Assembly: GCA_032139905.1 (NCBI GenBank)
Contig: JAQJDB010000007.1
Span: 1 to 64,000 of the forward strand
Direction of reading: 5' to 3'
Length of the DNA stretch: 64,000 nt
DNA from: Nitrospira sp. MA-1
GTDB lineage: Bacteria; Nitrospirota; Nitrospiria; Nitrospirales; UBA8639
Shown: one piece after another, positions 2,010 through 34,514 of the stretch
Position numbering within the stretch: the first letter of the stretch is position 1
Layout of the letters: each line of letters opens with the position of its first letter
The notes under the pieces: generated by a model
The model's database searches: none
What the model was told of the DNA's origin: nothing
What the model saw: the letters and a program-made list of their open reading frames with translations, nothing else
Program-made: the position numbers and the translations under genes

Positions 2010-2036
2010 GCGGAAGCCCAGAGGGGAGACCGAAGA

Positions 2037-2073
2037 GCAGGGGGCGACATCTGTCGCCCCCTGCTTTTTTTTT
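2037..2073 (+). terminator. Rho-independent terminator after nxrB
   Basis: A perfect 13-bp stem (2037-2049 with 2052-2064) closes a 2-base gap and is followed by nine T at 2065-2073, 28 bases after the nxrB stop. This is a textbook strong terminator that ends the nxr transcript. Confidence 0.93.
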
Positions 2074-2683
2074 ATTCAAAATTCTTCAAGCATTTTTACA
2101 ATACACTTTAGAACTGTAAATTCCGTATTACCTGAAAATGTTTTTTGATACCGTCCGGTCTTTACCTTTTTGCTCGACAAATGAGGCATGCATAGGATTA
2201 AGAAAAAACAGGGGTTCCTTATTCAGGAAAAAATCTACATATAGGGACAAGATTGTATCTCATGATAGGGAAAGGAGGTGAGTTCGGAGAACGCACGGGA
2301 TTCCACTGTATCCGCATTGTACGGCGTTGAAACATGTGCAAAGGATGAAATTGGATGAAAAATAAATGATGATTTTATTGGATTTTATTGTAACTATAGC
2401 TCATAAATTGTCTATGTTCAGAGCACCTCTCCTATTGGTGGAATTATAGAGTTTCATTGGAAGAGTGTTTGAAACCATTTTTTCCCGCTCATCAACCAAA
2501 CGATTCTATGGGTAGTTTGGAGAGGACACTCTTCTTTGAATCCCATAATGGCCTTGGCTTTTGAACTTTTCGACCCTTAGACCAGTCCGGTATAGTTAAT
2601 CTTTTGATAAAATTGGGTGAAAATTACAAGCTATGTTGTATTGATTCTTTTTGTCATGTCTGGCTGGATAAGGAGAGGTCCTA
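2074..2683. other. 610-bp non-coding region downstream of nxrB
   Basis: No convincing gene is seen. At 2272-2281 there is AAGGAGGTGA, the full complement of the usual 16S anti-Shine-Dalgarno, but no start codon follows at a usable distance. Short AT-rich repeats (GATTTTATTG twice near 2372-2391) are present. Promoters for the EgtB-like gene probably lie in the right part. Confidence 0.5.
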
Positions 2684-3910
2684 ATGATGCAATTGGCCAA
2701 ATTGAAAAGTGAATTAGACGATGCCCGGCTCTGCACGGATCGTCTCTTCTCCCTTGTGAGTGATGAAGCCATGTATGAGCGTCCAATCCCCGAGCGACAT
2801 CGTTTAATTTTTTACCTGGGCCATCTTGAGGCATTTGACTGGAATCAGATTGGTCGTTGGACATTGGGCATGCCGTCGTTTCATGAATCATTTGACCAGT
2901 TATTTGAAGCGGGAATTGATCCTTCCTTGGGAAATCTGCCCGCCGATCGACCATCGGATTGGCCGACAATAAATGAAGTGCACCGTTATAATGCACGTGC
3001 TCGTGAAGAAGTGGATCGTCTCTTGCCAACTGTTCCGGAATGTATAATCCATATGGCAGTGGAACATCGTCTGATGCATGCCGAGACGAATGCCTACTTA
3101 CTCCATCATTTGGATTTAAAGTACAAGCATGCGCCAGCGAATTCCTCCGGGGGCTTATCTTCTTCATTTTCAGAAGACATACCTAAAAATGAGATGATGG
3201 AAGTGCCAGAAGGCATGGCCACCCTCGGACGGGAGCCAGAAGAGGGGTTTGGCTGGGACAACGAATTCTTGCAACATGTCGTCCCTGTTCCTGCGTTTTT
3301 GATCAGCCGGCATAAAGTGACGAACCAACAATATCTGCGATTTGTTCAGGAAGGTGGCGAGCCGTCCGCATTTTGGGTCAAACGAGGGGATGCCTGGTAT
3401 GTGCGCACGATGTTCCAGGAAGTCCCATTACCGCCATTCTGGCCGGTGTATGTGACACATCGACAGGCGGAGGCTTACGCTAATTGGGCCGGCATGACCC
3501 TCCCGACCGAACCCCAATTTCATCGCGCCGCCTTTGGCACTCCGTCCGGTATTGAGCAATCCTTTCCCTGGGGTAATGCAGCGTCAATGTTTCAACATGG
3601 GAATGTTGATTTTCATGCTTGGGATCTGGCTCCTGTGAATGCCCATCCTCTTGGGGACAGTGCGTTTGGTTTGGCTCAGATGGTGGGAAATGGCTGGGAA
3701 TGGACATCGACCGTTTTCCATCCTTTTCATGGATTTTCACCCTTTCCCACGTATCCTGGTTATTCAGCCAGATTTTTTGATCAGGATCATTATGTGGTGA
3801 AAGGTGCCGGGCCTTTTACCTCCAGCCGACTCTTGCGCCGGTCGTTTCGAAATTGGTTTCGACAAAGTTACCCCTATGCGCATATCGGTTTCCGCTGTGT
3901 GCAGTCATAA
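2684..3910 (+). CDS. EgtB-like iron(II) sulfoxide synthase (DinB plus FGE-sulfatase domains)
   Basis: This 408-residue protein has the two-domain build of ergothioneine-type sulfoxide synthases. The N-terminal DinB-like helical bundle carries His47 (GHLEAFDW) and the iron-binding motif HRLMHAE at residues 128-134. From about residue 175 a formylglycine-generating-enzyme-like domain follows (SRHKVTNQQYLRF, WPVYVTHRQAEAYANW, QMVGNGWEW). EgtB joins a thiol to trimethylhistidine using O2. A methyltransferase EgtD is not adjacent, and SenA or OvoA relatives share the same build, so the exact substrate is open. GGAGAGG at 2671-2677 supports ATG 2684 or 2687. Confidence 0.8.
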   Translation: MMQLAKLKSELDDARLCTDRLFSLVSDEAMYERPIPERHRLIFYLGHLEAFDWNQIGRWTLGMPSFHESFDQLFEAGIDPSLGNLPADRPSDWPTINEVHRYNARAREEVDRLLPTVPECIIHMAVEHRLMHAETNAYLLHHLDLKYKHAPANSSGGLSSSFSEDIPKNEMMEVPEGMATLGREPEEGFGWDNEFLQHVVPVPAFLISRHKVTNQQYLRFVQEGGEPSAFWVKRGDAWYVRTMFQEVPLPPFWPVYVTHRQAEAYANWAGMTLPTEPQFHRAAFGTPSGIEQSFPWGNAASMFQHGNVDFHAWDLAPVNAHPLGDSAFGLAQMVGNGWEWTSTVFHPFHGFSPFPTYPGYSARFFDQDHYVVKGAGPFTSSRLLRRSFRNWFRQSYPYAHIGFRCVQS

Positions 3911-3965
3911 TGCTCATGGGTGACGCTGCTTCTTTTTCGTGTTGCATATTGGATGACACCTTTCA

Positions 3966-5522
3966 ATGCGAGTGATACTTAAAAGACGGGGGCATTGGGG
4001 GCTCCTCCTTTTTGCCTTGATTCTCTGGGGGAACCCAGCCTTTGCGACCGACCGGTTGGTGATTCTGCATTCGAGCGAGCATCACGGGGTTGCGCTTCCG
4101 CTTGAGCTAGCCGGAGAGACGGGAGTTGGAGGCCTGGCCAGGCGGGCCACAATTGTGGAAGAGGTTCGGCGGGAAGGCGTGCCGGTCTTGATGGTGGATT
4201 CGGGGGATATTCTTATTGGAACCGCTTTGTCTTCCTGGTTTCGCGGTGAACCGGATATACGAGCCATGAATCTGATCCGCTACGATGCGATGGTGGCTGG
4301 AAATCATGATTTTGATTATGGAATTGACCATCTTCGCACATTGGTTGAGTTAGCCGAATTCCCAATTTTATGCACGAACCTTCAGTCTAAGCGATCTGTC
4401 CTCCCTTGCCGGCGCTCAGTTGTCACCCGCTTGGGGAATGTGAGTGTTGGAATCGTCGGAATTGTGGGGAACAGTAATTTTCCTGATACCTTCAACCGGG
4501 ATGTCGCCAATACGTTATCATTGATGGATCCGATTGCCTCTCTTCAAACTGAAGCCCTGCGGTTACGGACAGAAGCCCATATTGACCTGGTCATTGCCCT
4601 CACACATCAAGATAGCAATGAAGATTTAAAAATTCTGGAGACCGTTGAGGGGGTGGATGTGCTCATCGGTGGACATACCGAAGGGTTTGACGGAATGTAT
4701 GCTCCTGGTTTGATGGAGCCGGTTGAATCCGTGACTCGTCCTCGATCGGTGTATGTGAAGACGCATCGGCAGGGCCGAACAGTCGGGCGATTAGATCTGA
4801 CGATTGAGGAAGGATCGGTGATCCAGGCGCGTTCACACAATATTCCAGTGACCGTGGAAGTTCCAGTCGAGCCGAATGTCCAACAACTTCTGAGCGAGTA
4901 TCGACAGCGGTTTGCCCGTCAAGCCACTCAGATATTGGGGGAGGCGTCTGTGCGGCTCCAGGGCGATCGGCCTGTTGTCCGGACCCAAGAAACCAATTTG
5001 GGAAATTTGTTGGCAGATCGTATGCGAAGGAAATTTGAGACGGATATCGCCTTAATAAATTCCGGACAAATTCGTCGAAGCCTGGAACCCGGTCCGGTAA
5101 CATTAGGCGATATGCTTTCGGTCCTGCCCTTTGACTCCGCCCTTGTGACCGTACATGTGACGGGAGCGATGCTTCGTCAGGTTTTAGAGCATAGTGTGAG
5201 TCAATGGCCGAATCATTCCGGTCGGTTCCTCCAGGTATCCGGTCTCCAGGTCACGTATCAAGGAAAGGCACCGGTTGGATCTCGTGTGAAGAGCATCATG
5301 GTTGGGGGTATGCCCTTAGATATGTCAAAAACCTATACTGTCGCGACGGACGCCTTTGTGGCTGAGGGCGGGGATGGCTATGACATGTTGACTCACCTCT
5401 CGGATCGAAGGGACCATCAAATCCCCTTGAGAGATCTGTTGTTGAAAGCCTTAGTTGATGGTCCGCTCTATGCGGAAGCAGATGATCGTATCGTATTCGT
5501 GAATAGCTTCCCGTCTCATTAA
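3966..5522 (+). CDS. Secreted bifunctional metallophosphatase / 5'-nucleotidase (UshA family)
   Basis: This 518-residue protein starts with a signal peptide (hydrophobic LLLFALILW, cleavage after NPAFA near residue 27). The metallophosphoesterase domain shows DSGDILIG, VAGNHDFDYG, ALTHQD and GGHTEG, and the C-terminal 5'-nucleotidase domain shows NSGQIRRSL and VLPFDSALVTV. Family members cleave phosphate from nucleotides or related phosphoesters in the periplasm. The first metal motif, usually TNDxHG, reads SSEHHG, so the Asp ligand is replaced by Glu. It sits 14 bases before an ECF transporter, which suggests that it frees the nucleoside or vitamin the transporter takes up (inference). Confidence 0.88.
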   Translation: MRVILKRRGHWGLLLFALILWGNPAFATDRLVILHSSEHHGVALPLELAGETGVGGLARRATIVEEVRREGVPVLMVDSGDILIGTALSSWFRGEPDIRAMNLIRYDAMVAGNHDFDYGIDHLRTLVELAEFPILCTNLQSKRSVLPCRRSVVTRLGNVSVGIVGIVGNSNFPDTFNRDVANTLSLMDPIASLQTEALRLRTEAHIDLVIALTHQDSNEDLKILETVEGVDVLIGGHTEGFDGMYAPGLMEPVESVTRPRSVYVKTHRQGRTVGRLDLTIEEGSVIQARSHNIPVTVEVPVEPNVQQLLSEYRQRFARQATQILGEASVRLQGDRPVVRTQETNLGNLLADRMRRKFETDIALINSGQIRRSLEPGPVTLGDMLSVLPFDSALVTVHVTGAMLRQVLEHSVSQWPNHSGRFLQVSGLQVTYQGKAPVGSRVKSIMVGGMPLDMSKTYTVATDAFVAEGGDGYDMLTHLSDRRDHQIPLRDLLLKALVDGPLYAEADDRIVFVNSFPSH

Positions 5523-5536
5523 CCTCTCATCACTGT

Positions 5537-7948
5537 ATGTCTCTTCCCCAAGCTGCTCGTGATTCACGACGATGGTGGGCTGATTTGGTAGCTGTCTGGC
5601 GGGATACCCGGCAGATTGTTCTAACGGCTCAGATTGCGGCAATTTATGCCGCAATTCTTATTCCCTTTAAAGCCGGCATTCCGATTGTTCCTGGTTTTGT
5701 GGAATTACGACCGGCTAATGCCATTCCTCTTGTGGCATCGCTGTTGTTTGGTCCCGCTGCGGCTTGGGGCGCAGGTATTGGCAATGTCATCGGAGATTGT
5801 TTCGGCACCTTGGGGCCGGCAAGTTTCTTTGGGTTTTTAGGCAATTTTATTTTCGGATATCTTCCGTATGTATTATGGGGGCATTTGGGGTGGTTCTCAT
5901 CCGGCCAGCCGCCTTTGGGGAAATCTTGGCGTCAGATGATGGAATATGGCGTGGTATGTATGATCGCTTCAGCCGCCTGTGCCGGAATGATTGCGTGGGG
6001 AGTGGAGTGGTTGGGGTTGTTACCCTTTGTTATCCTCGCTCCAGCGATCTTTTTTAATAATGTGGTGATGGGCATGTTTCTCGGTCCTCCATTATTGGGG
6101 TTTCTCTATCCGAGAGTGCAACGGTGGCGCTTGCGGTATGAAGATATTCGAGAATCAGGTGCTTCCCATATTAACCCTACCAAAAAGCTGGAGGCACCTA
6201 ATTCGGGGAGCGAGGGGACGAATGCCCATTTTCGCGACGTAATTGTGGACTGTCGTGGCTTTACATTCCAGTATGCGTCCGGTTCAGCACCTGTGCTCAG
6301 GAATGTGTCATTTTCTCTGGCTTCCGGTGAACTCGTTGTTCTGTTAGGCAGGAGTGGAAGTGGGAAGTCCACGATATGCTATGCCTGTAATGGTCTCATT
6401 CCTCATATGATCCCTGGGACACTTTCCGGAACGATGCGAGTGAAGGGCCGCGACACCGTGGATGATCCCGTGTGGAAACAGGCTGGGCGGGTTGGCTTGG
6501 TCTTTCAGGATTTTGATACGCAACTTGTGGCGACGACTGTTGAGGGGGAATTGCTCCACCCATTGGAATATCGTGACCCTCGACTTTTTGTGGACGAGGT
6601 CAGACGGCGGGTCGTTCGTGCCCTCAATCAAATCGGGTTGGCCGATTGTGCCCACCGTGATCCTATGACGATGTCCGGTGGCCAGAGGCAACGTCTGGTG
6701 ATGGCTTCTGTGCTGGTACAAGAACCGGCGCTGTTGGTCCTGGATGAACCCGGTTCAGACCTTGATCCGGCAGGCCGGTCACAACTACGTAATGTTTTAC
6801 GGAATCTTCAACAAGACGGAATTACTGTGCTCATGACCGAGCATAATGATGACTATCTTGCGCAAGCGGATCGAGTTCTGGTCTTGGATCAGGAGCACAT
6901 CGTTTGGGAAGGAAAGCCTGAGACCTTGTTGCGACAGCCTCAGTTGATGCGGGATTGTGGTCTTCGACCTTTCGTCCTGACAGAATGTTTTGAAGAATGG
7001 GGCCTGGAACACGTGCCTGTTTCCGTCGAGGAAGCATGGACCCGGGCTGATGAATTGAATCTTCGTCTGGCACCTCCGGCGGAGGTTCTTGATGATACAC
7101 TTCGGGTGGGGAAGCTGCCGGAGAGAGAATCAACGATGGCTTTGCCCTTGATTCAGGTTGACCACGTTTCTTTCCAGTATGAAGAGCAGACGGTCTTGGC
7201 TGACGTGTCATTTACCATCCAGCCAGGAGACTTTCTGGCATTGCTGGGTCAGAATGGATCAGGGAAAAGTACGCTTGCACGATTGCTCAATGGCCTCTTG
7301 ATGCCGACATGCGGCACCATTGTTGTGGACGGCATGAATACCCGCAGCACCTCGATGAATGAATTGGCCCAACGCGTCGGATTAGTTTTTCAAAATCCTG
7401 ATCATCAAATTTTTGCGGATACCGTCTGGGAAGAAGTTGCCTTCAGCGCGAAGAATATGGGTTGCTCAGAGGATGAGATTGCCGATCGGGTGAAAGAATC
7501 GTTGACTGCTGTGGGATTGCCTATTGAGGGAAGTCGGGACTTAGATCCGTTTTCCTTAAGAAAAGGGGAGCGACAGCGGATTGCGGTGGCGTCCGTGTTG
7601 GCTACGAGACCGGCTGTGTTGATTGTTGATGAACCCACGACAGGGCTTGATCCCCTTGAAACTGACCGGATGATGGCGATGATTCGGCGACTGAATCAAG
7701 AGGGGCATACGATTGTGATGATCACACATTCGATGGGGCTTGTTGCGGCTTATGCCCGGCGCTGTCTATTCATGTACAGCGGGAGGATTATTGCTGATGG
7801 AACGCCTCGAGAAGTTTTTGCTGATCCCGGGTTGATCCAGTCAGCATCATTAGAGATCCCGGCTATTTCCCGCTTTAGCCAACGATGGGGACAGACCTTA
7901 CTAACGGTGGAAGAAGTGAACGCCTCCTGGAGGCGAGGTTTTCCATGA
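5537..7948 (+). CDS. ECF transporter: fused S component and two ATPase domains
   Basis: This 803-residue fusion has an N-terminal membrane part (residues about 25-200) with several hydrophobic helices, typical of a substrate-binding S component (RPANAIPLVASLLFGPA, NVIGD). Two ABC ATPase domains follow. The first has GRSGSGKST, Q-loop FQDFD, signature MSGGQRQRL, Walker B LLVLDEPGSDLDP and His switch TEHND. The second starts near residue 535 with GQNGSGKST, FQNPDHQ, SLRKGERQR, VDEPTTGLDP and THSM. The S-component fold resembles small-molecule families such as QueT, but the substrate cannot be read. With EcfT at 8026 the set makes a complete energy-coupling-factor transporter. Confidence 0.85.
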   Translation: MSLPQAARDSRRWWADLVAVWRDTRQIVLTAQIAAIYAAILIPFKAGIPIVPGFVELRPANAIPLVASLLFGPAAAWGAGIGNVIGDCFGTLGPASFFGFLGNFIFGYLPYVLWGHLGWFSSGQPPLGKSWRQMMEYGVVCMIASAACAGMIAWGVEWLGLLPFVILAPAIFFNNVVMGMFLGPPLLGFLYPRVQRWRLRYEDIRESGASHINPTKKLEAPNSGSEGTNAHFRDVIVDCRGFTFQYASGSAPVLRNVSFSLASGELVVLLGRSGSGKSTICYACNGLIPHMIPGTLSGTMRVKGRDTVDDPVWKQAGRVGLVFQDFDTQLVATTVEGELLHPLEYRDPRLFVDEVRRRVVRALNQIGLADCAHRDPMTMSGGQRQRLVMASVLVQEPALLVLDEPGSDLDPAGRSQLRNVLRNLQQDGITVLMTEHNDDYLAQADRVLVLDQEHIVWEGKPETLLRQPQLMRDCGLRPFVLTECFEEWGLEHVPVSVEEAWTRADELNLRLAPPAEVLDDTLRVGKLPERESTMALPLIQVDHVSFQYEEQTVLADVSFTIQPGDFLALLGQNGSGKSTLARLLNGLLMPTCGTIVVDGMNTRSTSMNELAQRVGLVFQNPDHQIFADTVWEEVAFSAKNMGCSEDEIADRVKESLTAVGLPIEGSRDLDPFSLRKGERQRIAVASVLATRPAVLIVDEPTTGLDPLETDRMMAMIRRLNQEGHTIVMITHSMGLVAAYARRCLFMYSGRIIADGTPREVFADPGLIQSASLEIPAISRFSQRWGQTLLTVEEVNASWRRGFP

Positions 7949-25838: not shown

Positions 25839-25914
25839 GAGCCGCTAGCTCAGTTGGTAGAGCATCGCCCTTTTAAGGCGAGGGTCGTGCGTTCGAGCCG
25901 CACGCGGCTCACCA
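25839..25914 (+). tRNA. tRNA-Lys (anticodon TTT), integration target
   Basis: Complete cloverleaf: acceptor GAGCCGC/GCGGCTC, D arm CTCAGTTGGTAGAG, anticodon loop CTTTTAA (anticodon TTT), T arm with GTTCGAGCC, discriminator A and encoded CCA at 25912-25914. Its 3' half from 25867 is the left attachment core of the element that follows; the displaced original 3' half is at 34449. Confidence 0.97.
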
Positions 25915-27011
25915 TAAGTATCAAGAGGTTGTGCATCCTCTTCTTCCCCTGCCGTTCGGTCAGTCACGGTTTTAGTCACGGTTCCATCTGAAATTTGCCC
26001 CTGAAACGCCGTCAGACCTTCCACCGCGCTCCAGAGGTGAGTCGGGCTAAGATGGGCATAGCGTGACAACATAGCTGGAGACTTCCAGCCTCCCAAAGCC
26101 ATCAAGGTTCGGTCATTGGCACCTTGCATAGCCAAACGACTCGCAAAGCTATGCCGAAGATCATGAAACCTGAATGGAGCCAATCCTGAGGCAATTACGG
26201 CTTTCTCAAAGGCTCTCCTGAGGTAACGGGCATCCAGAGGAAAGATTCGATCCTGAAGGGCATCTTTGGATGATTCCTGCATAGGGGAAAGTAACCCCTG
26301 GACGGTGGAATTCATGGGAACCCGCCGAGGATCACCCGTCTTCGTTTCCCGTATCGTCAGGATGCCTGCATTCCAATCTAGGTCAGCCCACGTCAACCGG
26401 AGTAATTCGCCCTGCCTGCATCCTGTGTTCAACGCCACAAGTACAATGGGGCGATATTTTTCTGGAAGGTGTTTAAACAAGGATTCCTCCTGTTCAGCGG
26501 TCAGGTAACGAATAAGCACATTATTGACTTTGGGCGGCTTTACGCTGCTTGCGGGGTTTTCTTTTAAGAGGCCCAATCGTCGGGCATCATTCAAGGCGGC
26601 TTTCACAACCCCGAAGAACCGGAGAACGGTTCCAGGCTGGTAGCCATCTTCGGCTAACATCGTTAGCACTTTTTCAATATGACGTGGACCGATTTTGTTA
26701 ATATCCAGGTCTCCCAGCTCCGCAATCCAGCGGTCGATCCGTGACTTATCATCCCCTTTCCGCTTTCGGCGAGCGTCAATCCTGGCGATATAGTCATTCG
26801 CCACCTCACGGAAGAGAATAGTTTTAGGCTTCTCGAAGTATCGCCCGGAAAGTTGTTCACTTTTCAGTCGGCCATACAGGGCCTTTGCCTCACTTTTCGT
26901 CGAACAGCGAATACGCCGCTCCCTTCCACTCAGCCACATCCGTACAAACCACCGTCCACTTTTTGGTGGATACTCCAAAATTCCACGATCTTTCCCGTCT
27001 TTTCGTGCCAT
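25845..27011 (-). CDS. int: Tyrosine-type site-specific integrase
   Basis: This 388-residue phage-type integrase has an N-terminal arm-binding domain (residues 1-65), a SAM-like core-binding domain (about 70-165) and a catalytic domain. The active-site set is visible: Arg in LNTGCRQGELLRL, Lys in ETKTGDPRR, HDLRHSFASR (His-x-x-Arg), and Tyr in MLSRYAHLSP after GGWKS. The last 24 codons run antisense into tRNA-Lys. The final residues come from host sequence left of the att core, so they would differ in the excised circle. Confidence 0.95.
   Translation of the reverse strand: MARKDGKDRGILEYPPKSGRWFVRMWLSGRERRIRCSTKSEAKALYGRLKSEQLSGRYFEKPKTILFREVANDYIARIDARRKRKGDDKSRIDRWIAELGDLDINKIGPRHIEKVLTMLAEDGYQPGTVLRFFGVVKAALNDARRLGLLKENPASSVKPPKVNNVLIRYLTAEQEESLFKHLPEKYRPIVLVALNTGCRQGELLRLTWADLDWNAGILTIRETKTGDPRRVPMNSTVQGLLSPMQESSKDALQDRIFPLDARYLRRAFEKAVIASGLAPFRFHDLRHSFASRLAMQGANDRTLMALGGWKSPAMLSRYAHLSPTHLWSAVEGLTAFQGQISDGTVTKTVTDRTAGEEEDAQPLDTYGEPRAARTHDPRLKRAMLYQLS
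25867..25932 (+). repeat. attL core (direct repeat with attR)
   Basis: Identical to 34449-34514 except for one base (G at 25918, A at 34500): 51 matching bases, one mismatch, then 14 matching bases. It begins in the anticodon arm of tRNA-Lys and runs 18 bases past the CCA end, so the tRNA stays functional after integration. Confidence 0.95.
25962..25983 (+). repeat. Left arm-type repeats of the element
   Basis: AGTCACGGTT occurs at 25962-25971 and 25974-25983, a 12-base period, inside the 3' part of int and about 30 bases from the attL core. The same 10-mer is repeated near attR. They are therefore likely integrase arm-binding sites. Confidence 0.6.
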
Positions 27012-27014
27012 CTG

Positions 27015-27797
27015 TCACTCCTTTTGTTTGGGTGTCTTGTGGCGGCGTGTGTTCTTTTGCCCCTGGCTTTTGTTTTTTTGCCCCTTCGGTTGAGGTAATT
27101 CCTGACCAGCCTTTTCCGCGGCTCGTTTGTTACGCATGTACGCGACACTGTGGCAGTCCCGTCCACAATAGACCGCATTTTTTCTCAATCTGAGAAAGAT
27201 TCGATGACAATGAGGACACCGATTCACTGCCGAGGCATAGTCACTCATAAGTTGGGCGAGAAGGTAGAGGGCTTCTTCTTCTGGTTCTGAAAAATTCATT
27301 CCTACACTGTGATGGCGTTCAATCCCTACTCCCGGAATCGCTTTCTGTTGCATTAAATCCAGTTCCCATAAATCATCCCGCTTCACAAAATGGTACTGGA
27401 CACGTAAAGGATCAAGGGAGACTGCGCCTTCGTCGACCCAAGTATTTAAAATTTCGAGGAGTCTTTTTTGTGTTTTCTCCACTTCGTGAAGGGGAGGGAT
27501 AGGATCTTTTGATAGCACCATATCGACTGCATATCGAAAACCTACTTGGCCCTGCAAGAGAGCCCGCCGAGAGTCGTACAAGACCGCTAAAGCAGCAAAT
27601 TCTTCACGGACCTTTAAGCGTTCACCTTCGCTTTCCTCTTGAAGGTCTTTTTGAGCAGTTTGAACCAACCAATCCAGTGTGCTCCAAGAATCTCCATAAT
27701 GTATGCGGCTTTCAAGAATGCGACGCCATTCGGTAAATCCATTTAAAAACACCCGAGGAGAGCCGTCACTTTCTTTTTGTTTGGGATGTTGGGTCAT
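27015..27797 (-). CDS. CGNR-like zinc-finger protein
   Basis: This 260-residue protein ends in a probable zinc ribbon (RCPHCHRIF ... YCGRDCHSVAYMRNKRA, near residues 193-230) followed by a very basic Lys/Gln tail. The arrangement, helical N-terminal domain plus C-terminal zinc finger, matches ABATE/CGNR-type regulators. It lies 3 bases upstream of int on the same strand, so the two probably form one transcript. A role in controlling the element is inference. Confidence 0.68.
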   Translation of the reverse strand: MTQHPKQKESDGSPRVFLNGFTEWRRILESRIHYGDSWSTLDWLVQTAQKDLQEESEGERLKVREEFAALAVLYDSRRALLQGQVGFRYAVDMVLSKDPIPPLHEVEKTQKRLLEILNTWVDEGAVSLDPLRVQYHFVKRDDLWELDLMQQKAIPGVGIERHHSVGMNFSEPEEEALYLLAQLMSDYASAVNRCPHCHRIFLRLRKNAVYCGRDCHSVAYMRNKRAAEKAGQELPQPKGQKNKSQGQKNTRRHKTPKQKE

Positions 27798-27819
27798 AGC
27801 GGAATTTCAATAAGATGTA

Positions 27820-27837
27820 CTCAACAACTTAGTTGAG
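27820..27837. promoter_or_regulatory. Inverted repeat in the divergent control region
   Basis: CTCAAC-N6-GTTGAG, a perfect 6-bp inverted repeat, lies between the zinc-finger gene (minus) and the AlpA-like gene (plus). Its position suits an operator that controls both directions. Confidence 0.45.
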
Positions 27838-27917
27838 CTATTGAAGACTTTACTCATTTATATGATAATAGTCAACATTAGTGATGAAGAGTTATATCCA
27901 CACAGGAGGATTTTACG

Positions 27918-28112
27918 ATGGGCGAAAATCTTTTAACAGTGAAGCAAGCGGCCTCCATCCTGGGCCTTCAAGAAAGTACGGTTCGAAAATGGGTTTTAAG
28001 TCGACGTGTGGGCGTTGTGCGCTTGGGTCGGAGTGTTCGCCTCCGCCGTGATGAGGTGGAGACCATGATTGAGCGTAATTATATTAGTCCCGTTGTTGTC
28101 CAAAAGGGCTAG
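27918..28112 (+). CDS. AlpA/excisionase-family DNA-binding protein
   Basis: This 64-residue protein is a MerR-like helix-turn-helix of the excisionase type: LTVKQAASILGLQESTVRKW followed by a wing (GVVRLGRSVRLRRDEVETMI). Such proteins act as recombination directionality factors or as activators of the integrase in satellites. AGGAGG at 27904-27909 supports ATG 27918. It is the first gene of the rightward transcript. Confidence 0.87.
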   Translation: MGENLLTVKQAASILGLQESTVRKWVLSRRVGVVRLGRSVRLRRDEVETMIERNYISPVVVQKG

Positions 28113-28133
28113 GGAATTTCGGAGCGACCAATA

Positions 28134-28553
28134 ATGGCGTGGCCAATTCTGAAATGGGTTCTCACTAACCTGAGTGTGGGTGGAAACGCCAAATTGGTGG
28201 CTATCCTTTTGGCCAATTTTGCCAATGATAAAGGAATCGCCTGGCCGTCGGTGGCAACCCTGGCACTAATAACGGGCCTCAGTAGACGCCAAATTCAGCG
28301 AATTTTGCCGCAGATTGAAAAAGCCGGACTAGTGAAGATTTCATCAGGAGGAGGACGAAAACAAACGCACCGATACCAATTCACCTATGTGGAAAACAGT
28401 GACAATTTGTCATCCTTTCCCCACCGAAACGGTGACAATTTGTCCCAAAAGGGTGACGACATGTCACCCGATCCTCTTATAACCAAAAAGAAGAAGAGTA
28501 ACGTTTCACTGAATGGCATGAAGAGTAAGAGAGGACATAAGGTGGCATTATGA
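28134..28553 (+). CDS. Helix-turn-helix replication-type protein
   Basis: This 139-residue protein has an N-terminal winged-helix domain (LVAILLANFANDKGIAWPSV ... TGLSRRQIQRILPQIEKAG) of the HTH_36 type found in phage replication initiators, and a basic, Ser/Asn-rich tail. It overlaps the primase-helicase start by 4 bases (ATGA), so the two are coupled; it may recognize the element's origin and load the helicase. Confidence 0.8.
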   Translation: MAWPILKWVLTNLSVGGNAKLVAILLANFANDKGIAWPSVATLALITGLSRRQIQRILPQIEKAGLVKISSGGGRKQTHRYQFTYVENSDNLSSFPHRNGDNLSQKGDDMSPDPLITKKKKSNVSLNGMKSKRGHKVAL

Positions 28554-30277
28554 AAACCTTTGCGGATTTTGCCATTGAGACAAATGGGCGAGTCGGCAAT
28601 ATTAAAACGATATGCCCACAATGTTCGCCGGGGCGAACCCATCACAAAGATCCCTGTTTGAGTGTGAACACGGAGGAAGGAGTGTGGCTTTGTCATCATT
28701 GTGCGTGGAAGGGTGGTTTAAATGGCTCATCAGGTGACTTTGGTATGAGTCGGAAGAAGAAAGCCTATAGACGACCAATCTATCACCCGACCCACCACAA
28801 TCAGGAAAAATTGGTGTCATGGTTCCAAGCACGTGGCATTTCTCAGAATGTGGTTATACGCCACAAGATCACCTTGGGTAGGAAGTTTTTCCCTGGCTTA
28901 AATCAAGAAGTTGAGAGTATCCAATTTCCCTACTTCCGCAATGGTGAAATCATTAATGTGAAATACCGGGCATTGGACACGAAAAACTTTTTACAAGAGG
29001 CTGGGGCAGAAAAAATCCTGTATGGCCTGGATGATATTCAAGGAGTTGATTGGGCGGTAATTGTCGAAGGTGAGCTAGATAAATTGGCCTGTGAAGTTGC
29101 GGGTGTTCCCAATGTCTTGAGTGTCCCTGATGGGGCACCACCCGAACACTCCAAACCGTCTGATACGAAATTTGAATACCTAGTGAACTGTGAAGCGGAA
29201 TTGAGTCGATTACCAAAGATCATCAATGCCGTAGATGCTGATGGACCAGGCAAGACACTAGAAATGGAACTCGTCCGTCGATTGGGACCAGAGCGGTGCT
29301 ATCGGGTGCAATGGCCGGATGGGTGCAAGGATGCCAATGATACGCTTTTAAAGAGAGGGGCAGAGCATGTAAGAAGGTGTATTGACCAAGCGACCCCTTG
29401 GCCGATTGATGGCATCGTGGAGCCTAAAGACCTGATCGACGAGATCTTTCAACTTCATGAAGAAGGCTGGAAAGGCGGTTTGACTACCGGATGGAACAGT
29501 GTGGACCAGTATTATACCGTCAAACCCGGTCAACTCACGATTGTTACGGGCATCCCTGGCCACGGCAAGTCAGAATTTTTAGACGCAATGGCCGTCAATA
29601 TGGCTGATCAGCATGGATGGGTCATTGGGGTATGCAGCCCAGAGAATTGGCCCCTTCAGGACCATAGTGCCAAGCTGTTGGAAAAGTATAACGGCAAACC
29701 ATTTGGGCAGGGCCCCACTCCGCGAATGGATCATCAGGACCTTGTGGACGGTATACAATGGTTGCAAGAGCATTTCATCTTTTTCAGTCCACCAGAAGAC
29801 GCCATGACCATAGAGAAGATTTTAGAGCTTGCCCGACAAGCCGTCGCTCGGTACGGGATTCACGGATTAATCATTGATCCCTGGAATGAACTGGATCATT
29901 CTCGGCCTGCTAATTTGACAGAGGTGGAATATATCTCAAGATGCCTGACGAAGGTACGGCGATTCGCTCGAAACCATGGGGTGCATGTCTGGTTTGTGGC
30001 CCATCCCATGAAACTGAAGAAGAAAGAGGATGATACCTATCCTGTTCCCACGCCTTATGACATAAGCGGAGCGGCTCATTGGCGGAATAAGGCAGATAAC
30101 TGCCTTACCGTATGGCGGAACCTTGAAGAGCCGGACCAGGGGGTAGAACTCCACGTCCAAAAAATTCGGTTCCGGCAGGTTGGGAAAATCGGGGTCGTTG
30201 ATTTGGCATGGAACCCCATTAATGGGCGTTATGGTGGGGTGAAAGGGGGATTCCAAGGTGCTCAAATTGATCCCTGA
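28550..30277 (+). CDS. Primase-helicase (zinc finger, TOPRIM, RecA-type helicase)
   Basis: This 575-residue protein is built like phage T7 gp4 or Twinkle. It has an N-terminal zinc finger (CPQC near residue 22, CHHC near 48), a TOPRIM-like region (WAVIVEGELDKLACEVAG near 165-183, then NAVDADGPG), and a RecA-type ATPase with Walker A GIPGHGKSE near 335 and Walker B GLIIDPWNELDH near 438. It would prime and unwind DNA to replicate the excised element. Some canonical primase residues are hard to verify by eye. The gene is coupled to the HTH gene. Confidence 0.87.
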   Translation: MKTFADFAIETNGRVGNIKTICPQCSPGRTHHKDPCLSVNTEEGVWLCHHCAWKGGLNGSSGDFGMSRKKKAYRRPIYHPTHHNQEKLVSWFQARGISQNVVIRHKITLGRKFFPGLNQEVESIQFPYFRNGEIINVKYRALDTKNFLQEAGAEKILYGLDDIQGVDWAVIVEGELDKLACEVAGVPNVLSVPDGAPPEHSKPSDTKFEYLVNCEAELSRLPKIINAVDADGPGKTLEMELVRRLGPERCYRVQWPDGCKDANDTLLKRGAEHVRRCIDQATPWPIDGIVEPKDLIDEIFQLHEEGWKGGLTTGWNSVDQYYTVKPGQLTIVTGIPGHGKSEFLDAMAVNMADQHGWVIGVCSPENWPLQDHSAKLLEKYNGKPFGQGPTPRMDHQDLVDGIQWLQEHFIFFSPPEDAMTIEKILELARQAVARYGIHGLIIDPWNELDHSRPANLTEVEYISRCLTKVRRFARNHGVHVWFVAHPMKLKKKEDDTYPVPTPYDISGAAHWRNKADNCLTVWRNLEEPDQGVELHVQKIRFRQVGKIGVVDLAWNPINGRYGGVKGGFQGAQIDP

Positions 30278-30338
30278 CAAGGCACCGGTAACCTTTCAAC
30301 TCATCAGCCCAATCATTTCCTCTATACTCCACACATGA

Positions 30339-30413
30339 TTTGAAATCCTCTGGTTCCATCGCAGTGGTGACTCTTAGGGTTGAATGAATCCGGACGAAAT
30401 TATAGTGCATCAA
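30339..30413 (-). pseudogene. Transposase remnant (C-terminal fragment)
   Basis: The minus strand encodes MHYNFVRIHSTLRVTTAMEP, typical of the C-terminal end of IS1-type DDE transposases (HYNF-RIH-TLRVTPAME). Nothing upstream continues the protein, since a stop lies about 20 bases before it. It marks the joint between the replication module and the AT-rich cargo. Confidence 0.7.
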
Positions 30414-30483
30414 AATTATCGACTTAATTCAACAGAATTGGTACGGTTGAAAATTATTGGTTTTGATGAAAGGTGTGGAGTTT

Positions 30484-31347
30484 ATGTTTCAATTAGAAGA
30501 AGCCACCGAACAGGATCTAAAGCGCCTTCTTGAGTTATTTCCTGTAGCGGTTTTAAAGAGCAAATGGCCTAGTATTTCTGGAACGAAAGAGGAAATTTGC
30601 TTTGCCGTGGCTGGACAGCGAGATTTTGAAGAAATTAAGGATTTTTTGGTTACGAATTTCAGTTGTTGCCGACAGCATGTTTATGTTTTTTCCCACAGTA
30701 TCCCATTAATATCTCTTCCATCTATTAACATTCCTGACGGTGTGAATATTTTTGAATCAAAACAGGAGAAATCTCTAAGCCTGGCTTATATCACAAAGCT
30801 TACATTTTCCGTTGTACTTAGGGACCCACTTGAAGAGGCAACACTAGAATTTCTATGGCCCGTACGCCTCGACTTCACTGAGAGGCACCTAATCGTTAAA
30901 TTTGTTATATTAGAAAAAAATATCGGATCATATTTTGATGGGCGACAATACTATATGGATCGTCGAAGTACAGAGGAAAAGGTGATTTTACAAAACTTGG
31001 AAGAAACAATAGTTGGGATACAGTCCACTGATTTACATAAAGGGGTAAAAAAATTATGGGAAGAAGGTTTTATGGATTCCCCGAAGGCTCGATTTAAAAA
31101 ACCCATCTCAACTGCCTATGAGGCTATGGATGAAGAACTGGGAATAAAAGAGCACAATCCCGAAGTTTATGAAGTCCTTTCAGACTCCATTTTGCTTAAT
31201 ACCTTATTCGTAATACCATCTACTCAAAGCCTTAGCATTAGTACCTTTTCAATGGAACCTTCTAAAGGTTGCATTAACTTTCCCCGTTATTCTGAAAAAG
31301 TGGGTGACACCGATTATGTGGTTAACGAAATTCTTAGACATAACTAG
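30484..31347 (+). CDS. Unknown cargo protein 1 of the element
   Basis: This protein of about 287 residues is not recognized. It is soluble, with no signal peptide or membrane helix and many Phe/Ile/Leu beta-type stretches (HLIVKFVILEKNIG) between acidic segments. Codons are AT-rich compared with the replication genes. AAAGG at 30469-30473 favours ATG 30484; starts at 30457 (TTG) and 30466 are possible. It overlaps the next gene, so the three genes up to 31934 form one translation-coupled unit. Confidence 0.72.
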   Translation: MFQLEEATEQDLKRLLELFPVAVLKSKWPSISGTKEEICFAVAGQRDFEEIKDFLVTNFSCCRQHVYVFSHSIPLISLPSINIPDGVNIFESKQEKSLSLAYITKLTFSVVLRDPLEEATLEFLWPVRLDFTERHLIVKFVILEKNIGSYFDGRQYYMDRRSTEEKVILQNLEETIVGIQSTDLHKGVKKLWEEGFMDSPKARFKKPISTAYEAMDEELGIKEHNPEVYEVLSDSILLNTLFVIPSTQSLSISTFSMEPSKGCINFPRYSEKVGDTDYVVNEILRHN

Positions 31348-31705
31348 CCGACTTTTCCCATCCGATCCATTAGCTGATCTTGGCGAGGTAGTTTCCCGTT
31401 TAAATCCGGATAAGATATACATTGAAAATGTTCGCGCAATACTGGGAACTTCTCATAACAAAGCAGTAAGAATTTGCGAAACTGCTGTTCAGCAAGGACT
31501 TTTTAATCGCGGCATTGAGGTGTTATGCCCAGATGGCTCTGTAGCTACTTCTGTAAGAATAGAAGAGGAGTTGCCCCCTGAAGTAAATTGCTGGATAGAA
31601 GTAGATGGGCAATTTGAAGAAAAAACTATTCCTACAAGTAGTCTCGATAAAGTTACCTTCTACCAATTGAGTAGTAATGCCCCCTCCGCCCTCATACACG
31701 GATAG
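31316..31705 (+). CDS. Unknown cargo protein 2 (possible winged helix)
   Basis: This protein of about 129 residues is not recognized. The middle part (RLNPDKIYIENVRAILGTSH then KAVRICETAVQQGLF) reads like a winged-helix domain, followed by a beta-rich segment (IEVLCPDGSVATSVRIEEE) and an acidic tail. The start is ATG 31316 or GTG 31304; either way it overlaps cargo gene 1 by 32-44 bases and cargo gene 3 by 29 bases. Confidence 0.68.
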   Translation: MWLTKFLDITSRLFPSDPLADLGEVVSRLNPDKIYIENVRAILGTSHNKAVRICETAVQQGLFNRGIEVLCPDGSVATSVRIEEELPPEVNCWIEVDGQFEEKTIPTSSLDKVTFYQLSSNAPSALIHG

Positions 31706-31934
31706 ACAATTAAAAACCGTAATCATTCTAAAAAGGCTAAGAATGATTTCGGTTTTCTTTTACACCCTACTCTTTGTATTTTTGGGAATCCTTGGTCTTT
31801 TTCTATTTTTCGTTTTTACAGAAGCAGATTGGCAAACTAAAACTATATTAGGTGTTTTGGATGGAATAGTTGGTTGGGCACTAAAACCCCTCACCCAGTA
31901 TCTTTTCAATGATCAAGACATTTCAAAGGTCTGA
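31677..31934 (+). CDS. Unknown cargo protein 3 (small membrane protein)
   Basis: This 85-residue protein has a hydrophobic helix at about residues 21-45 (MISVFFYTLLFVFLGILGLF) and a second weaker one near 55-72, with a positively charged N-terminus. It is the last gene of the overlapping triplet. A small membrane protein paired with cytoplasmic partners is a common build of abortive-infection or toxin modules, but there is no direct evidence of function. Confidence 0.65.
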   Translation: MPPPPSYTDRQLKTVIILKRLRMISVFFYTLLFVFLGILGLFLFFVFTEADWQTKTILGVLDGIVGWALKPLTQYLFNDQDISKV

Positions 31935-32490
31935 TCAAATTTCAAACATTACAAGTGCCCCTAATTCCCTTTTAGGGGAACTCTCACAGAGTATAGGTCC
32001 ATATTTCCATTCAAGGTTATTGGATGGTTGGATGCCAACATGATGGCAAGCAAAAATTGGCGGGATAACGAAGAGAGCCTAATGATGGGTGCCTGCCTCA
32101 CATTTCGCCATGAAATCCCTTTCATTCCAGGGCCTTGTCAATATCAAATGTTTCAAAAGCACCCATTGAACATGCAGTCTTTCGTGTGGTAAATATAAAA
32201 CCTTGGGCAATTATACTTAAATTATATATTTCGTCCAGCGATCCACGCAACCGTCCCACCTTTTTGAGTTGCTAATTAAGCCAAAAAGCTTACAGTAATA
32301 GGGCCTTCTTTGGCGGCGAAGGAGGGGCAAGCCTGTCTTTCTTACTTACTCTTTAAACGGGACCTTTACCATGGACATTCGCCGAAGCTTCTACTTACCT
32401 TCTGTCCACAGGCTTTGGGGACCTACTGCCGACTCTGGCTCATGAAAATTTCCTGGACGGGACCAAATACATATTGTGGCTTAGTAGGGG
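31935..32490. other. Non-coding gap within the element cargo
   Basis: About 555 bases without a convincing gene. A perfect 7-bp hairpin (CCCCTAA/TTAGGGG near 31957-31979) follows the triplet and could end its transcript, although no T-run follows. Confidence 0.4.
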
Positions 32491-34053
32491 ATGGTTCTTT
32501 TGAGAAATAATATGAACCTTAACAGGTATTGTTGGATTCTTCCGAGCAAAGGCCCTCATGTGACTGCTTTCTGGCTCTTGCTTGTCTTTTGCTTCCTTTT
32601 TTCTTCATCCAGCCTTGGTGGTGAGACACCAATAGAACTAGAACGTGAATTAGCGAGTATTTCCCTTGGGATGTCGATTCAGGAAGTAGAAAAATATTAC
32701 GAGATGTCCGAGGGAGACCCTTGGTTTATCAATATCCTAACGAAAGGGCAGAAAGAAGCAGCTTTTGATCAAACCTACATCCGCAAGGCCAAGGAAAAGA
32801 CTTACTCCCTAAAAGGAGCGCTACCACCTCATGTCAAAAATTTGCGAGCTGTTTTTTTGAAAGGGCAGTTATATCTAATAACTCTAGATATGGAAAAAGA
32901 ATTTCTTGAAAGTGTGGATTGGCCAACCTTTATAAAACCGTATGTGGAAAAATATGGCCCCTCTGCTGAATCTTCTAATCAGGGAAACACCTCTAGAGAA
33001 GAATGGAAGGACGGAAAAACCTATTTAGAACTTACCCAAATAGCACAATCACCAACTGTGGATTGGTCTTACCGTATTTCTCTGATCGATATTTCATTAG
33101 ATAATCAAGCTAACGAGATATGGAATTTTGTAGCAATTAGTTTTGATGCTGAAAAAGGAAATATAGAGGCTCAACGTGCTCTGGGATTAGCCTACTATTT
33201 TGGTGAGGGAACAACACCGGATCACGCGCAAGCTGCTCATTGGTGGTTGAAAGGCGCGTCTCAAGGCGATGCAAAGTCGCAATTTGCACTCGGCCTGTTG
33301 TACTCGAAGGGAAAAGGAGTCAAAAAGGATCCTGCAAAAGCCGTGTACTGGTATGAAAAGGCTGCTCAACAAGGGTTTTCAGGAGGACAAGTCAATCTTG
33401 GGTATTCCTATATGGAAGGTGAGGGAGTTGAAAAGGATTACAAAAAAGGCCTTCATTGGAATTTACTCGCTGCAAATCAAGGAAGTGCCGCAGCTCAAAG
33501 TAATCTTGGTGAAATTTATCGCGACGGGTTAGGGGTGGTGCAGGACTATGTTCAGGCGCATATGTGGTTTAATCTTGCCGCCGCACAAAGCCTAGAAGAG
33601 GCCATTAAAAATAGAGATGAGCTTTCTAAGAAAATGGCCTCGGAGCAAATCGCGGCGGCGCAGAAACTTGCTCTTGAATGGAAGCCTCCCAAAACTCCGA
33701 AGGATCGAAAATGGAATTTTGCCCGAGACATTGATGGGGACGGTCACTTTACAATTGATGATGTGACCGGTTGGGTCGGTTGGTTGTTTTATTATCCTGG
33801 TGACCGCGTAATACAATGGCTTCTTTCTAATGAAAAAGTAGACACAGCCCATTTTTTCAAGATTACCCCACAGGACTATGGCGGGGGACTCTCTTTCCTA
33901 TTTTCCCTTGTTGGGTGGGGGCTCGGTTCCATTGCTTTTTTCATGGTTTTGGGGGTTATTGCGAAAATCTTGGATAGAACGGACGAATTTTCACGAAGTG
34001 TGGCCCAATATGTTAAGGGCAAATGGGAAACCATTAAGCAGAAAAAGAATTAA
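32491..34053 (+). CDS. Sel1-repeat protein with EF-hand-like motif and membrane anchor
   Basis: This 520-residue protein has an N-terminal hydrophobic segment (FWLLLVFCFLFSSSSLGG, residues about 28-45) that may be a signal. An unclassified domain (50-205) is followed by at least four Sel1-like repeats (AQRALGLAYYFGEG, SQFALGLLYSKGKG, GQVNLGYSYMEGEG, AQSNLGEIYRDGLG; residues about 228-365). A calcium-loop-like motif DIDGDGHFTIDD lies near 411 and a C-terminal membrane helix at about 470-492. Sel1 repeats are protein-interaction scaffolds. It is cargo of the element; its role is unknown. Confidence 0.82.
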   Translation: MVLLRNNMNLNRYCWILPSKGPHVTAFWLLLVFCFLFSSSSLGGETPIELERELASISLGMSIQEVEKYYEMSEGDPWFINILTKGQKEAAFDQTYIRKAKEKTYSLKGALPPHVKNLRAVFLKGQLYLITLDMEKEFLESVDWPTFIKPYVEKYGPSAESSNQGNTSREEWKDGKTYLELTQIAQSPTVDWSYRISLIDISLDNQANEIWNFVAISFDAEKGNIEAQRALGLAYYFGEGTTPDHAQAAHWWLKGASQGDAKSQFALGLLYSKGKGVKKDPAKAVYWYEKAAQQGFSGGQVNLGYSYMEGEGVEKDYKKGLHWNLLAANQGSAAAQSNLGEIYRDGLGVVQDYVQAHMWFNLAAAQSLEEAIKNRDELSKKMASEQIAAAQKLALEWKPPKTPKDRKWNFARDIDGDGHFTIDDVTGWVGWLFYYPGDRVIQWLLSNEKVDTAHFFKITPQDYGGGLSFLFSLVGWGLGSIAFFMVLGVIAKILDRTDEFSRSVAQYVKGKWETIKQKKN

Positions 34054-34286
34054 TAAACTCCAGATGAAAAATTTTAACTAGACTTTCACTGCCCAACCGA
34101 AGAATCAGGCATGAGCCCAAGAAAGATATATATCCCCGTCGTGAGCGGCTTGCATAGGCATCTAATCACGAGGGCCTTTTTGGGGGTCTGTTGTGAGAGG
34201 GGTGGTTCCATCGCCCAAGTAGGCCGGGTAGGGGCTAAGCCCATTGGGGGTGGGGGTGTTTATGGTGAAGTTTTGACGAGAAGTTT

Positions 34287-34331
34287 AGTCACGGTTCTAG
34301 TCACGGTTCGGTCACGGTTTTGGTCACGATC
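34287..34331 (+). repeat. Right arm-type repeats of the element
   Basis: Four copies in tandem with an 11-12 base period: AGTCACGGTT at 34287 and 34299, GGTCACGGTT at 34310, GGTCACGATC at 34322. They lie about 120 bases inside attR and share the exact 10-mer with the left arm, as expected for integrase arm sites. Confidence 0.65.
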
Positions 34332-34448
34332 CAGAATGTACCTCAATCTCAGTAGATCACACTCGAAGGCGGTAATTCGCCTTACCAGTTAAAGGAATTA
34401 TCACTCTTAGTCTTACTCAATCATTCTCTAGGGCAATCGTCCAAGTTT

Positions 34449-34514
34449 GCCCTTTTAAGGCGAGGGTCGTGCGTTCGAGCCGCACGCGGCTCACCATAAA
34501 TATCAAGAGGTTGT
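34449..34514 (+). repeat. attR core: displaced 3' half of tRNA-Lys
   Basis: 66 bases matching attL (25867-25932) with one mismatch, starting in the tRNA anticodon arm and including the CCA end. No 5' half precedes it, so it is not a working tRNA. Confidence 0.95.

What the first reader, a model, noticed from the sequence alone, without database searches (positions are those of the whole stretch)
34287..34331. Matching arm-site repeats at both ends of the element
The 10-mer AGTCACGGTT is present twice near attL (25962, 25974) and twice exactly plus two variants near attR (34287, 34299, 34310, 34322), all with an 11-12 base period. Two sites on one side and four on the other resemble the asymmetric P and P' arms of lambda-type systems. 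The left sites also encode part of the integrase tail.
Basis: partly seen in the sequence, partly recalled or inferred. Interest (0 to 1): 0.55.

Follow-up and report, generated by a model that had tools for sequence, protein, structure and literature searches.

The report
Integrase docking repeats at element ends
Short repeated DNA words at both ends of a small mobile element in a Nitrospirales bacterium are very probably the docking sites for the element's own integrase; comparison with many relatives suggests that the enzyme's small front domain and these words change together, even between otherwise different integrases.

Summary
An 8,582-bp element lies in a tRNA-Lys gene; five related genomes show the site empty. 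AGTCACGGTT stands twice 95 bp inside attL and four times (12-11-12 spacing, two copies degenerate) 162 bp before attR. The single 10-mer is at chance level in the genome, but the tandem occurs only at the two ends. The same layout recurs across Nitrospirota: a degenerate tandem pattern hits 28 of 295 genomes, its reversed control none, and 58 of 74 places lie in loci with a related integrase. In the integrase tail the words are conserved at synonymous sites, so the DNA itself is selected. The word tracks the integrase's first ~55 residues, a predicted arm-binding fold, rather than its catalytic domain or the excisionase. Best explanation: lambda-style arm-type sites bound by the integrase N-domain; binding is untested. 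The kind of system is known, and similar covariation on a small scale is in print for mycobacteriophages. The notable part is the apparent exchange of N-domain plus arm words between recombinases whose catalytic domains are only about 27% identical.

The parts
25867..34448 (.). integrated element, one unit of 8,582 bp from attL repeat start to attR repeat start
   Evidence: direct repeats; empty site in five same-genus genomes
25839..25914 (+). tRNA-Lys(ttt), target gene, restored at attL
   Evidence: ARAGORN
25867..25932 (.). attL core repeat (51 bp exact to 25917; 66 bp with one mismatch), begins at the anticodon stem-loop
25962..25971 (+). left (P'-like) arm site 1, AGTCACGGTT
   Evidence: conserved in relatives
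25974..25983 (+). left (P'-like) arm site 2, AGTCACGGTT
   Evidence: conserved in relatives
25845..27011 (-). tyrosine-recombinase integrase ORF (388 aa); its tail is written over the left arm sites and runs antisense through the tRNA gene
   Evidence: PF00589 E=2.9e-32; phrog_1
26823..27011 (-). integrase residues 1-63, predicted arm-binding domain (three strands and a helix)
   Evidence: AlphaFold2 models; covariation with the word
27015..27797 (-). 260-aa protein with Cys pairs in its C-terminal part, conserved next to int in most relatives; function unknown
   Evidence: no Pfam family at cut-off
27918..28112 (+). excisionase-family HTH protein (Xis candidate)
   Evidence: TIGR01764 48.3 bits against a cut-off of 28.8; HTH_17
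28134..28553 (+). replication-initiation-like HTH_36 protein
28550..30277 (+). primase/DnaB-like helicase
32491..34053 (+). Sel1-repeat cargo protein
34287..34296 (+). right (P-like) arm site 1, AGTCACGGTT
34299..34308 (+). right arm site 2, AGTCACGGTT
34310..34319 (+). right arm site 3, GGTCACGGTT
34322..34331 (+). right arm site 4, GGTCACGATC (degenerate)
34449..34514 (.). attR core repeat (51 bp exact; 66 bp with one mismatch)

Best explanation
The repeats are arm-type integrase sites of a lambda-style (heterobivalent) tyrosine-recombinase element. In the excised circle, attP would read: four sites about 162 to 118 bp before the start of the crossover repeat, then the tRNA-Lys anticodon-loop core, then two sites about 95 to 117 bp after that start. 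The small N-terminal domain of the integrase binds the 10-bp words as neighbouring copies about one helical turn apart, while the core-binding and catalytic domains sit on the core. Bridging arms and core builds the integrative complex and, with the Xis-family protein, the excisive one. The left pair is written inside the 3' end of int, so it also fixes a T-V-T-K-T-V-T tail, which looks like a by-product. Shown: position, uniqueness, recurrence, DNA-level constraint, word and N-domain covariation, occupied and empty sites. Inferred: binding by the N-domain, joint occupancy of neighbouring sites, roles of the arms in integration and excision, part played by Xis.
For: Tandem only at the two ends in 4.76 Mb, control 0. 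Pattern RSTCMCRGTTTTRSTCMCRGTT in 28 of 295 Nitrospirota genomes, 74 places, reversed control 0; of the 74, 39 are left pairs at an integrase 3' end and 19 further places in such loci, 15 have no related integrase found in the fetched stretch, 1 was not fetched. Geometry: of 37 distinct elements with att repeats, 35 have a right-hand chain; left-pair distance clusters at 68-69, 91-95 and 115-116 bp, right-arm distance is 160-166 bp in 28 of 35, and the spacing is 12,11,12 in 17 of 35. Word agreement of the two ends: right-hand sites of GTCAC-left elements are 49 GTCAC and 0 CTCCC of 79; of CTCCC-left elements 33 CTCCC and 0 GTCAC of 49. Synonymous sites: TVTKTVT codons identical in 10 of 10 divergent GGTCAC integrases (mean codon identity 0.41 over 61 other invariant residues; 0 of 55 runs reach it) and 5 of 5 AGTCAC integrases (0 of 83 runs). 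In G198 and G083b the pair lies outside the int ORF. N-domain against catalytic domain: G102/G122 87% N, 27% C, same word; G084/G134 75% C, N-domain under 65%, different word; parsimony changes 3 on the N tree, 7 on the C tree; partial correlation with the 6-letter word 0.42 (0 of 2000 permutations) against -0.08. Predicted N-domain fold; the whole integrase is closest to lambda Int 1z1b in the PDB. Empty site in 5 of 20 same-genus genomes.
Against: No binding or recombination data. With the coarser 5-letter word the partial correlation for the N-domain is weak (0.10, 189 of 2000 permutations reach it). Permutations ignore phylogeny. Of 182 pairs with N>=70% and C<40%, 23 differ in 5-letter word. 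G305 (AGTCAC) has an N-domain nearest to CTCCC ones. GTCCC words occur in the right arms of both main classes (16 of 79 and 7 of 49). One relative of the int family (G145a) has no recognisable left pair, and G104 and G215 have no right-hand chain. The structural match of the isolated N-domain to known arm-binding domains is weak (3rmp Z 3.4, 3jtz Z 3.2, 1bb8 Z 3.1), and no Pfam model hits it.
Confidence: 0.93

Rival explanations
1. The tandem repeats are binding sites of the excisionase/RDF (which in other systems binds direct repeats one helical turn apart), not of the integrase.
For: A TIGR01764 excisionase-family protein is encoded in the element; RDF sites are described as direct repeats one turn apart for phage 186 Apl (abstract of PMC7498355 in the listing).
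Against: Xis-like proteins 90-100% identical go with different words (for example G087 and G101a, 100%, ACTCCC and GGTCAC). Nearest neighbour by Xis predicts the 6-letter word in 7 of 24, by N-domain in 20 of 24; partial correlation Xis given N 0.005, N given Xis 0.60.
Confidence: 0.04
2. The left pair is only a conserved peptide tail (TVTKTVT or TGSKTGS) of the integrase, and the right copies are a coincidental or remnant duplication.
For: Where the pair lies in the ORF it is always in the same frame.
Against: Codons are invariant far beyond protein constraint; the right copies hold the same words and 12-11-12 spacing away from int; in G198 and G083b the pair is outside the ORF.
Confidence: 0.01
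3. Replication iterons or operator sites for another element protein that happen to lie near both ends.
For: The element carries a replication-initiation-like gene and a primase-helicase; iterons are tandem direct repeats (recalled).
Against: By tblastn at E 1e-3, relatives of the two replication proteins were found in 2 other loci only (G007 and G017a) of those searched, while the words occur in dozens; the distance to the crossover is fixed whatever lies inside.
Confidence: 0.02

Closest known systems
Lambda integrase attP (P and P' arm-type sites)
   Same: Heterobivalent tyrosine recombinase with an N-terminal domain for arm sites on both sides of the core; nearest PDB fold is lambda Int 1z1b; arm and core bridging and use of Xis are described in passages of PMC4880445.
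   Different: Six sites (2+4) against five in lambda; sites are tight tandems in one orientation; the core is a tRNA anticodon loop; IHF sites were not looked for. That the lambda word also contains AGTCAC is recalled, not tested.
ICEMlSymR7A IntS attP
   Same: Integrase next to attL and five arm-type motifs in a 283-bp attP (passages of PMC11963761).
   Different: Different word (TGKTGGTATC) and number of sites; that element is conjugative.
Cluster K and J mycobacteriophage integration cassettes
   Same: Pairs of 10-11 bp putative arm sites flank a tRNA or tmRNA core; in cluster K1 differing arm consensus was linked to N-domain substitutions at residues 17 and 19 (passages of PMC3203893 and PMC3706429).
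   Different: There the integrases are close relatives with small word differences, and in cluster J no systematic difference was seen; here the word changes with the N-domain across very different catalytic domains and three to four words.
P4-like and genomic-island integrases (HPI, HAI7) and Tn916 Int arm-binding domains
   Same: Small strand-plus-helix DNA-binding domain; weak matches 3rmp, 3jtz, 3ju0, 1bb8.
   Different: No Pfam model matches this N-domain, so it looks like a divergent subfamily.

Membership tests
Arm-binding-domain tyrosine recombinase (complex YR) integrative element | Tyrosine-recombinase catalytic domain | tested here: met
   PF00589 112 bits against a cut-off of 27.1; R199, H283, R286 and Y318 invariant in alignment A1 (their catalytic roles are recalled)
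Arm-binding-domain tyrosine recombinase (complex YR) integrative element | N-terminal domain of three strands and one helix in front of the core-binding domain | tested here: met
   Predicted only: strands 11-13, 21-27, 30-36 and helix 39-55, mean pLDDT 75 and 74; PDB matches of the domain alone are weak
Arm-binding-domain tyrosine recombinase (complex YR) integrative element | Arm sites of one word on both sides of the core in attP | tested here: met
Arm-binding-domain tyrosine recombinase (complex YR) integrative element | Integrase N-domain binds the arm sites | not testable with these tools
   Covariation only
Arm-binding-domain tyrosine recombinase (complex YR) integrative element | Target-site repeat and empty site | tested here: met
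   51-bp exact repeats; purA-tRNA-Lys joined to the attR outer flank in L180, L182, L183, L184, L186
Lambda-type attP in the strict sense | IHF or similar bending sites between arms and core | not tested
   No search made
Lambda-type attP in the strict sense | Cognate excisionase encoded near int | tested here: met
   TIGR01764 above cut-off; an Xis-like hit in many relatives. Its function is not shown

The most novel reading that the evidence does not exclude
Across Nitrospirota, small integrative elements carry an exchangeable address cassette: an arm-binding domain that no Pfam model recognises, together with its tandem arm words, moves between recombinases whose catalytic domains are only about 27% identical. 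Nature has thus run domain swaps that expose a readable code (candidate residues 12-20, 33 and 36-38 for words AGTCAC, GGTCAC, ACTCCC and GGTCCC). Elements that kept arms and att repeats but lost int may be mobilised in trans by any integrase that reads their word.
Probability: 0.45. Interest if true: 0.7.

Novelty: new member of a known kind. Interest (0 to 1): 0.5.

Why it matters
Arm-site recognition is a poorly understood part of tyrosine integrases because arm-binding domains are so variable. Here one phylum offers dozens of integrases with three to four arm words, apparent swaps of the N-domain, and a DNA pattern that finds both element ends. That makes a recognition code testable with short duplexes, gives a way to map element ends and attP in uncultured bacteria, and could yield integrases with chosen arm specificity for genetic tools.

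Tried and rejected
Rejected: rarity of the single 10-mer as evidence (14 against 9 in the control). Rejected: excisionase sites, peptide-only constraint, iterons. A 5-letter word label gave only a weak partial signal for the N-domain; I keep the 6-letter result but report both. Searches that led nowhere: viral contigs with the tandem pattern gave one contig only (L119), and int relatives there were about 30% identical; plasmid and phage collections hold only matches under 60% identity, so I could not test the code outside Nitrospirota. Pfam gave nothing for the N-domain and nothing at cut-off for the 260-aa neighbour. Foldseek gave no match below E 0.001 for the isolated N-domain. Promoter scan of the right end: no promoter-like site. 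A clustering of the left-pair distance at 68-69, 91-95 and 115-116 bp is unexplained.

Rows dropped before counts: of 65 distinct integrase ORFs kept (duplicates G008, G073b, G085a and G089c removed there), 4 without an N-terminus were left out (61 left), 4 had no usable word, 2 had words outside the three 5-letter classes (55 left), and near-copies were removed to 36. The codon test used hand-chosen divergent members: 10 of 21 GGTCAC, 5 of 5 AGTCAC and 9 of 16 ACTCCC integrases. The Xis test used 24 of 41 after removal of near-copies. The word label is the second copy of the left pair. In one search, L035 was dropped as a second fetch of G008.

Papers: passages seen by term search in PMC8138268, PMC11963761, PMC2951348, PMC4880445, PMC3203893, PMC10865867 and PMC3706429; PMC7498355 only as an abstract in a listing. 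No paper on these Nitrospirota arm sites appeared in the listings; this is not proof that none exists.

Full report
What was claimed and what is there. The six repeats are present at the stated coordinates, all in one orientation, with spacings of 12 on the left and 12, 11, 12 on the right. The fourth right-hand copy has three mismatches. The single 10-mer is not rare: 14 copies in the 4.76-Mb genome against 9 for the reversed control. The tandem is: the exact form occurs twice, once at each element end, and a degenerate form gives three places in the same two arrays, control 0.

The element. A tRNA-Lys gene (25839-25914) holds a 51-bp exact repeat (66 bp with one mismatch) that recurs at 34449. 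The repeat begins at the anticodon stem-loop. In five of 20 same-genus genomes examined the purA-tRNA-Lys flank runs into the sequence found outside attR: L180 from G003 at 98.8% and 88%, and L182, L183, L184 and L186. So 8,582 bp were inserted. The element encodes a tyrosine integrase, a 260-aa protein of unknown family, an excisionase-family HTH protein, replication-type proteins and cargo. No capsid or conjugation gene was recognised among the eight ORFs scanned against Pfam and PHROGs.

Relatives. Integrase relatives occur in 79 of 146 related genomes at E<=1e-30; the close named relatives are MAGs labelled Nitrospirales, Nitrospiraceae, Nitrospira, Nitrospirota and one Nitrospinota. Of 52 integrase loci examined first, 42 have, beside the int 3' end, a pair of 10-mers with 12-bp period matching each other in at least 9 of 10 bases (in one, G131, the word is a weak variant). 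In all, 83 stretches were scanned, some overlapping. Without using int at all, the pattern RSTCMCRGTTTTRSTCMCRGTT hits 28 of 295 Nitrospirota genomes at 74 places, reversed control 0. Of the 74, 39 are left pairs at an integrase 3' end, 19 are further places in such loci (one of them, in G089d, with the word of the other class), 15 lie in stretches without a related integrase (some at contig ends, some integrase-less elements), and one was not fetched.

Geometry. Among 37 distinct elements with att repeats of 30 bp or more (38 rows, one fetched twice), 35 have a chain of right-hand sites. Left-pair distance from the repeat start clusters at 68-69, 91-95 and 115-116 bp; right-arm distance is 160-166 bp in 28 of 35; spacing is 12,11,12 in 17 of 35. 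The left word occurs as an exact 10-mer at the right end in 29 of 35. Right-hand sites in GTCAC-left elements are 49 GTCAC, 16 GTCCC and 0 CTCCC of 79; in CTCCC-left elements 33 CTCCC, 7 GTCCC and 0 GTCAC of 49. So the two ends keep the same class, with GTCCC as a shared intermediate.

DNA, not peptide. The left pair encodes TVTKTVT (or TGSKTGS) in the int tail. In ten divergent GGTCAC integrases all seven codons are identical, while the 61 other invariant residues show 41% mean codon identity and no run of seven reaches the tail (0 of 55). For AGTCAC the figures are 5 of 5 and 0 of 83; for ACTCCC tail identity is 0.84 with 0 of 41 runs reaching it. In G198 and G083b the pair lies outside the ORF.

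Who reads the word. I split each integrase into residues 1 to about 55 and the rest. G102 and G122 share 87% of the N-domain, 27% of the rest, and the same word. The integrase of G073e has a very different catalytic domain and yet the GGTCAC-type N-domain and GGTCAC arms. Conversely G084 and G134 are 75% identical in the catalytic part but under 65% in the N-domain and differ in word, and L039 and G003, which group near the window integrase by catalytic domain, have another N-domain type and ACTCCC words. Nearest neighbour predicts the 5-letter word in 32 of 36 by N-domain and 28 of 36 by catalytic domain; when neighbours alike in the other part are excluded, 27 of 36 against 17 of 36. Word changes on the tree: 3 (N) against 7 (C) for 5 letters, 9 against 12 for 6 letters. 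Partial correlation with the 6-letter word is 0.42 for N (0 of 2000 permutations) and -0.08 for C; with the 5-letter word 0.10 (189 of 2000) and 0.06 (209 of 2000). Permutation ignores phylogeny and the N tree has few columns, so I lean on the swap pairs more than on these numbers. Candidate reading residues that separate the word classes are 12-20, 33 (R in AGTCAC and RGTCCC, W in GGTCAC and ACTCCC) and 36-38.

Excisionase disfavoured. Xis-like proteins 90-100% identical go with different words, such as G087 and G101a (100%; ACTCCC and GGTCAC). Nearest neighbour by Xis predicts the 6-letter word in 7 of 24, by N-domain in 20 of 24; partial N given Xis 0.60 (0 of 2000), Xis given N 0.005.

Structure. 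The integrase model (mean pLDDT 75) has strands 11-13, 21-27 and 30-36 and helix 39-55 ahead of core-binding and catalytic domains; the best PDB match is lambda Int 1z1b, E 8.8e-15. The N-domain alone (pLDDT 74) matches arm-binding domains of P4-like, HPI and Tn916 integrases and plant AP2 domains, all weakly, Z about 3 to 5, among unrelated folds with similar Z.

Prior art and novelty. Arm-binding domains as a hallmark of mobile integrases are described in passages of PMC8138268. Linking arm consensus to N-domain substitutions was proposed for cluster K1 mycobacteriophages (PMC3203893) and no systematic link was seen in cluster J (PMC3706429). The window element is therefore a new member of a known kind. 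What I did not find in the listings is a phylum-wide set with exchange of N-domain plus arms between different recombinases.

Verdict. Binding itself, the number of integrase protomers, and which arm sites serve integration or excision remain inferred.

Noticed in passing
L172 (G112) 1178-5596; L173 (G096, read in reverse); L158 (G085c, read in reverse); L153 (G065a): Elements with att-like repeats and arm words near both ends but no recognisable intact integrase; G096 keeps a 3' int remnant. They may be decayed, or mobilised in trans by an integrase that reads the same word.
   Followed up: partly
window 25845-25983: The integrase ORF runs through the arm pair and antisense through the tRNA; the last residues would differ between integrated (388 aa) and circular (390 aa) forms.
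   Followed up: partly
window 27015-27797: 260-aa protein with Cys pairs in its C-terminal part, conserved beside int in most related elements, without a Pfam family at cut-off.
   Followed up: partly
related elements: Distance from the crossover repeat to the left pair falls in three clusters about 23 bp apart (68-69, 91-95, 115-116), near two site spacings.
   Followed up: no
window 31713-31756: Inverted repeat with 17-bp arms (94% complementary, 10-base loop) after the cargo ORFs, terminator-like.
   Followed up: no
window 25919-25932 and 34501-34514: TATCAAGAGGTTGT follows the tRNA at both attL and attR, and similar sequence follows the tRNA in empty sites of relatives, perhaps a trace of earlier integrations.
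   Followed up: no
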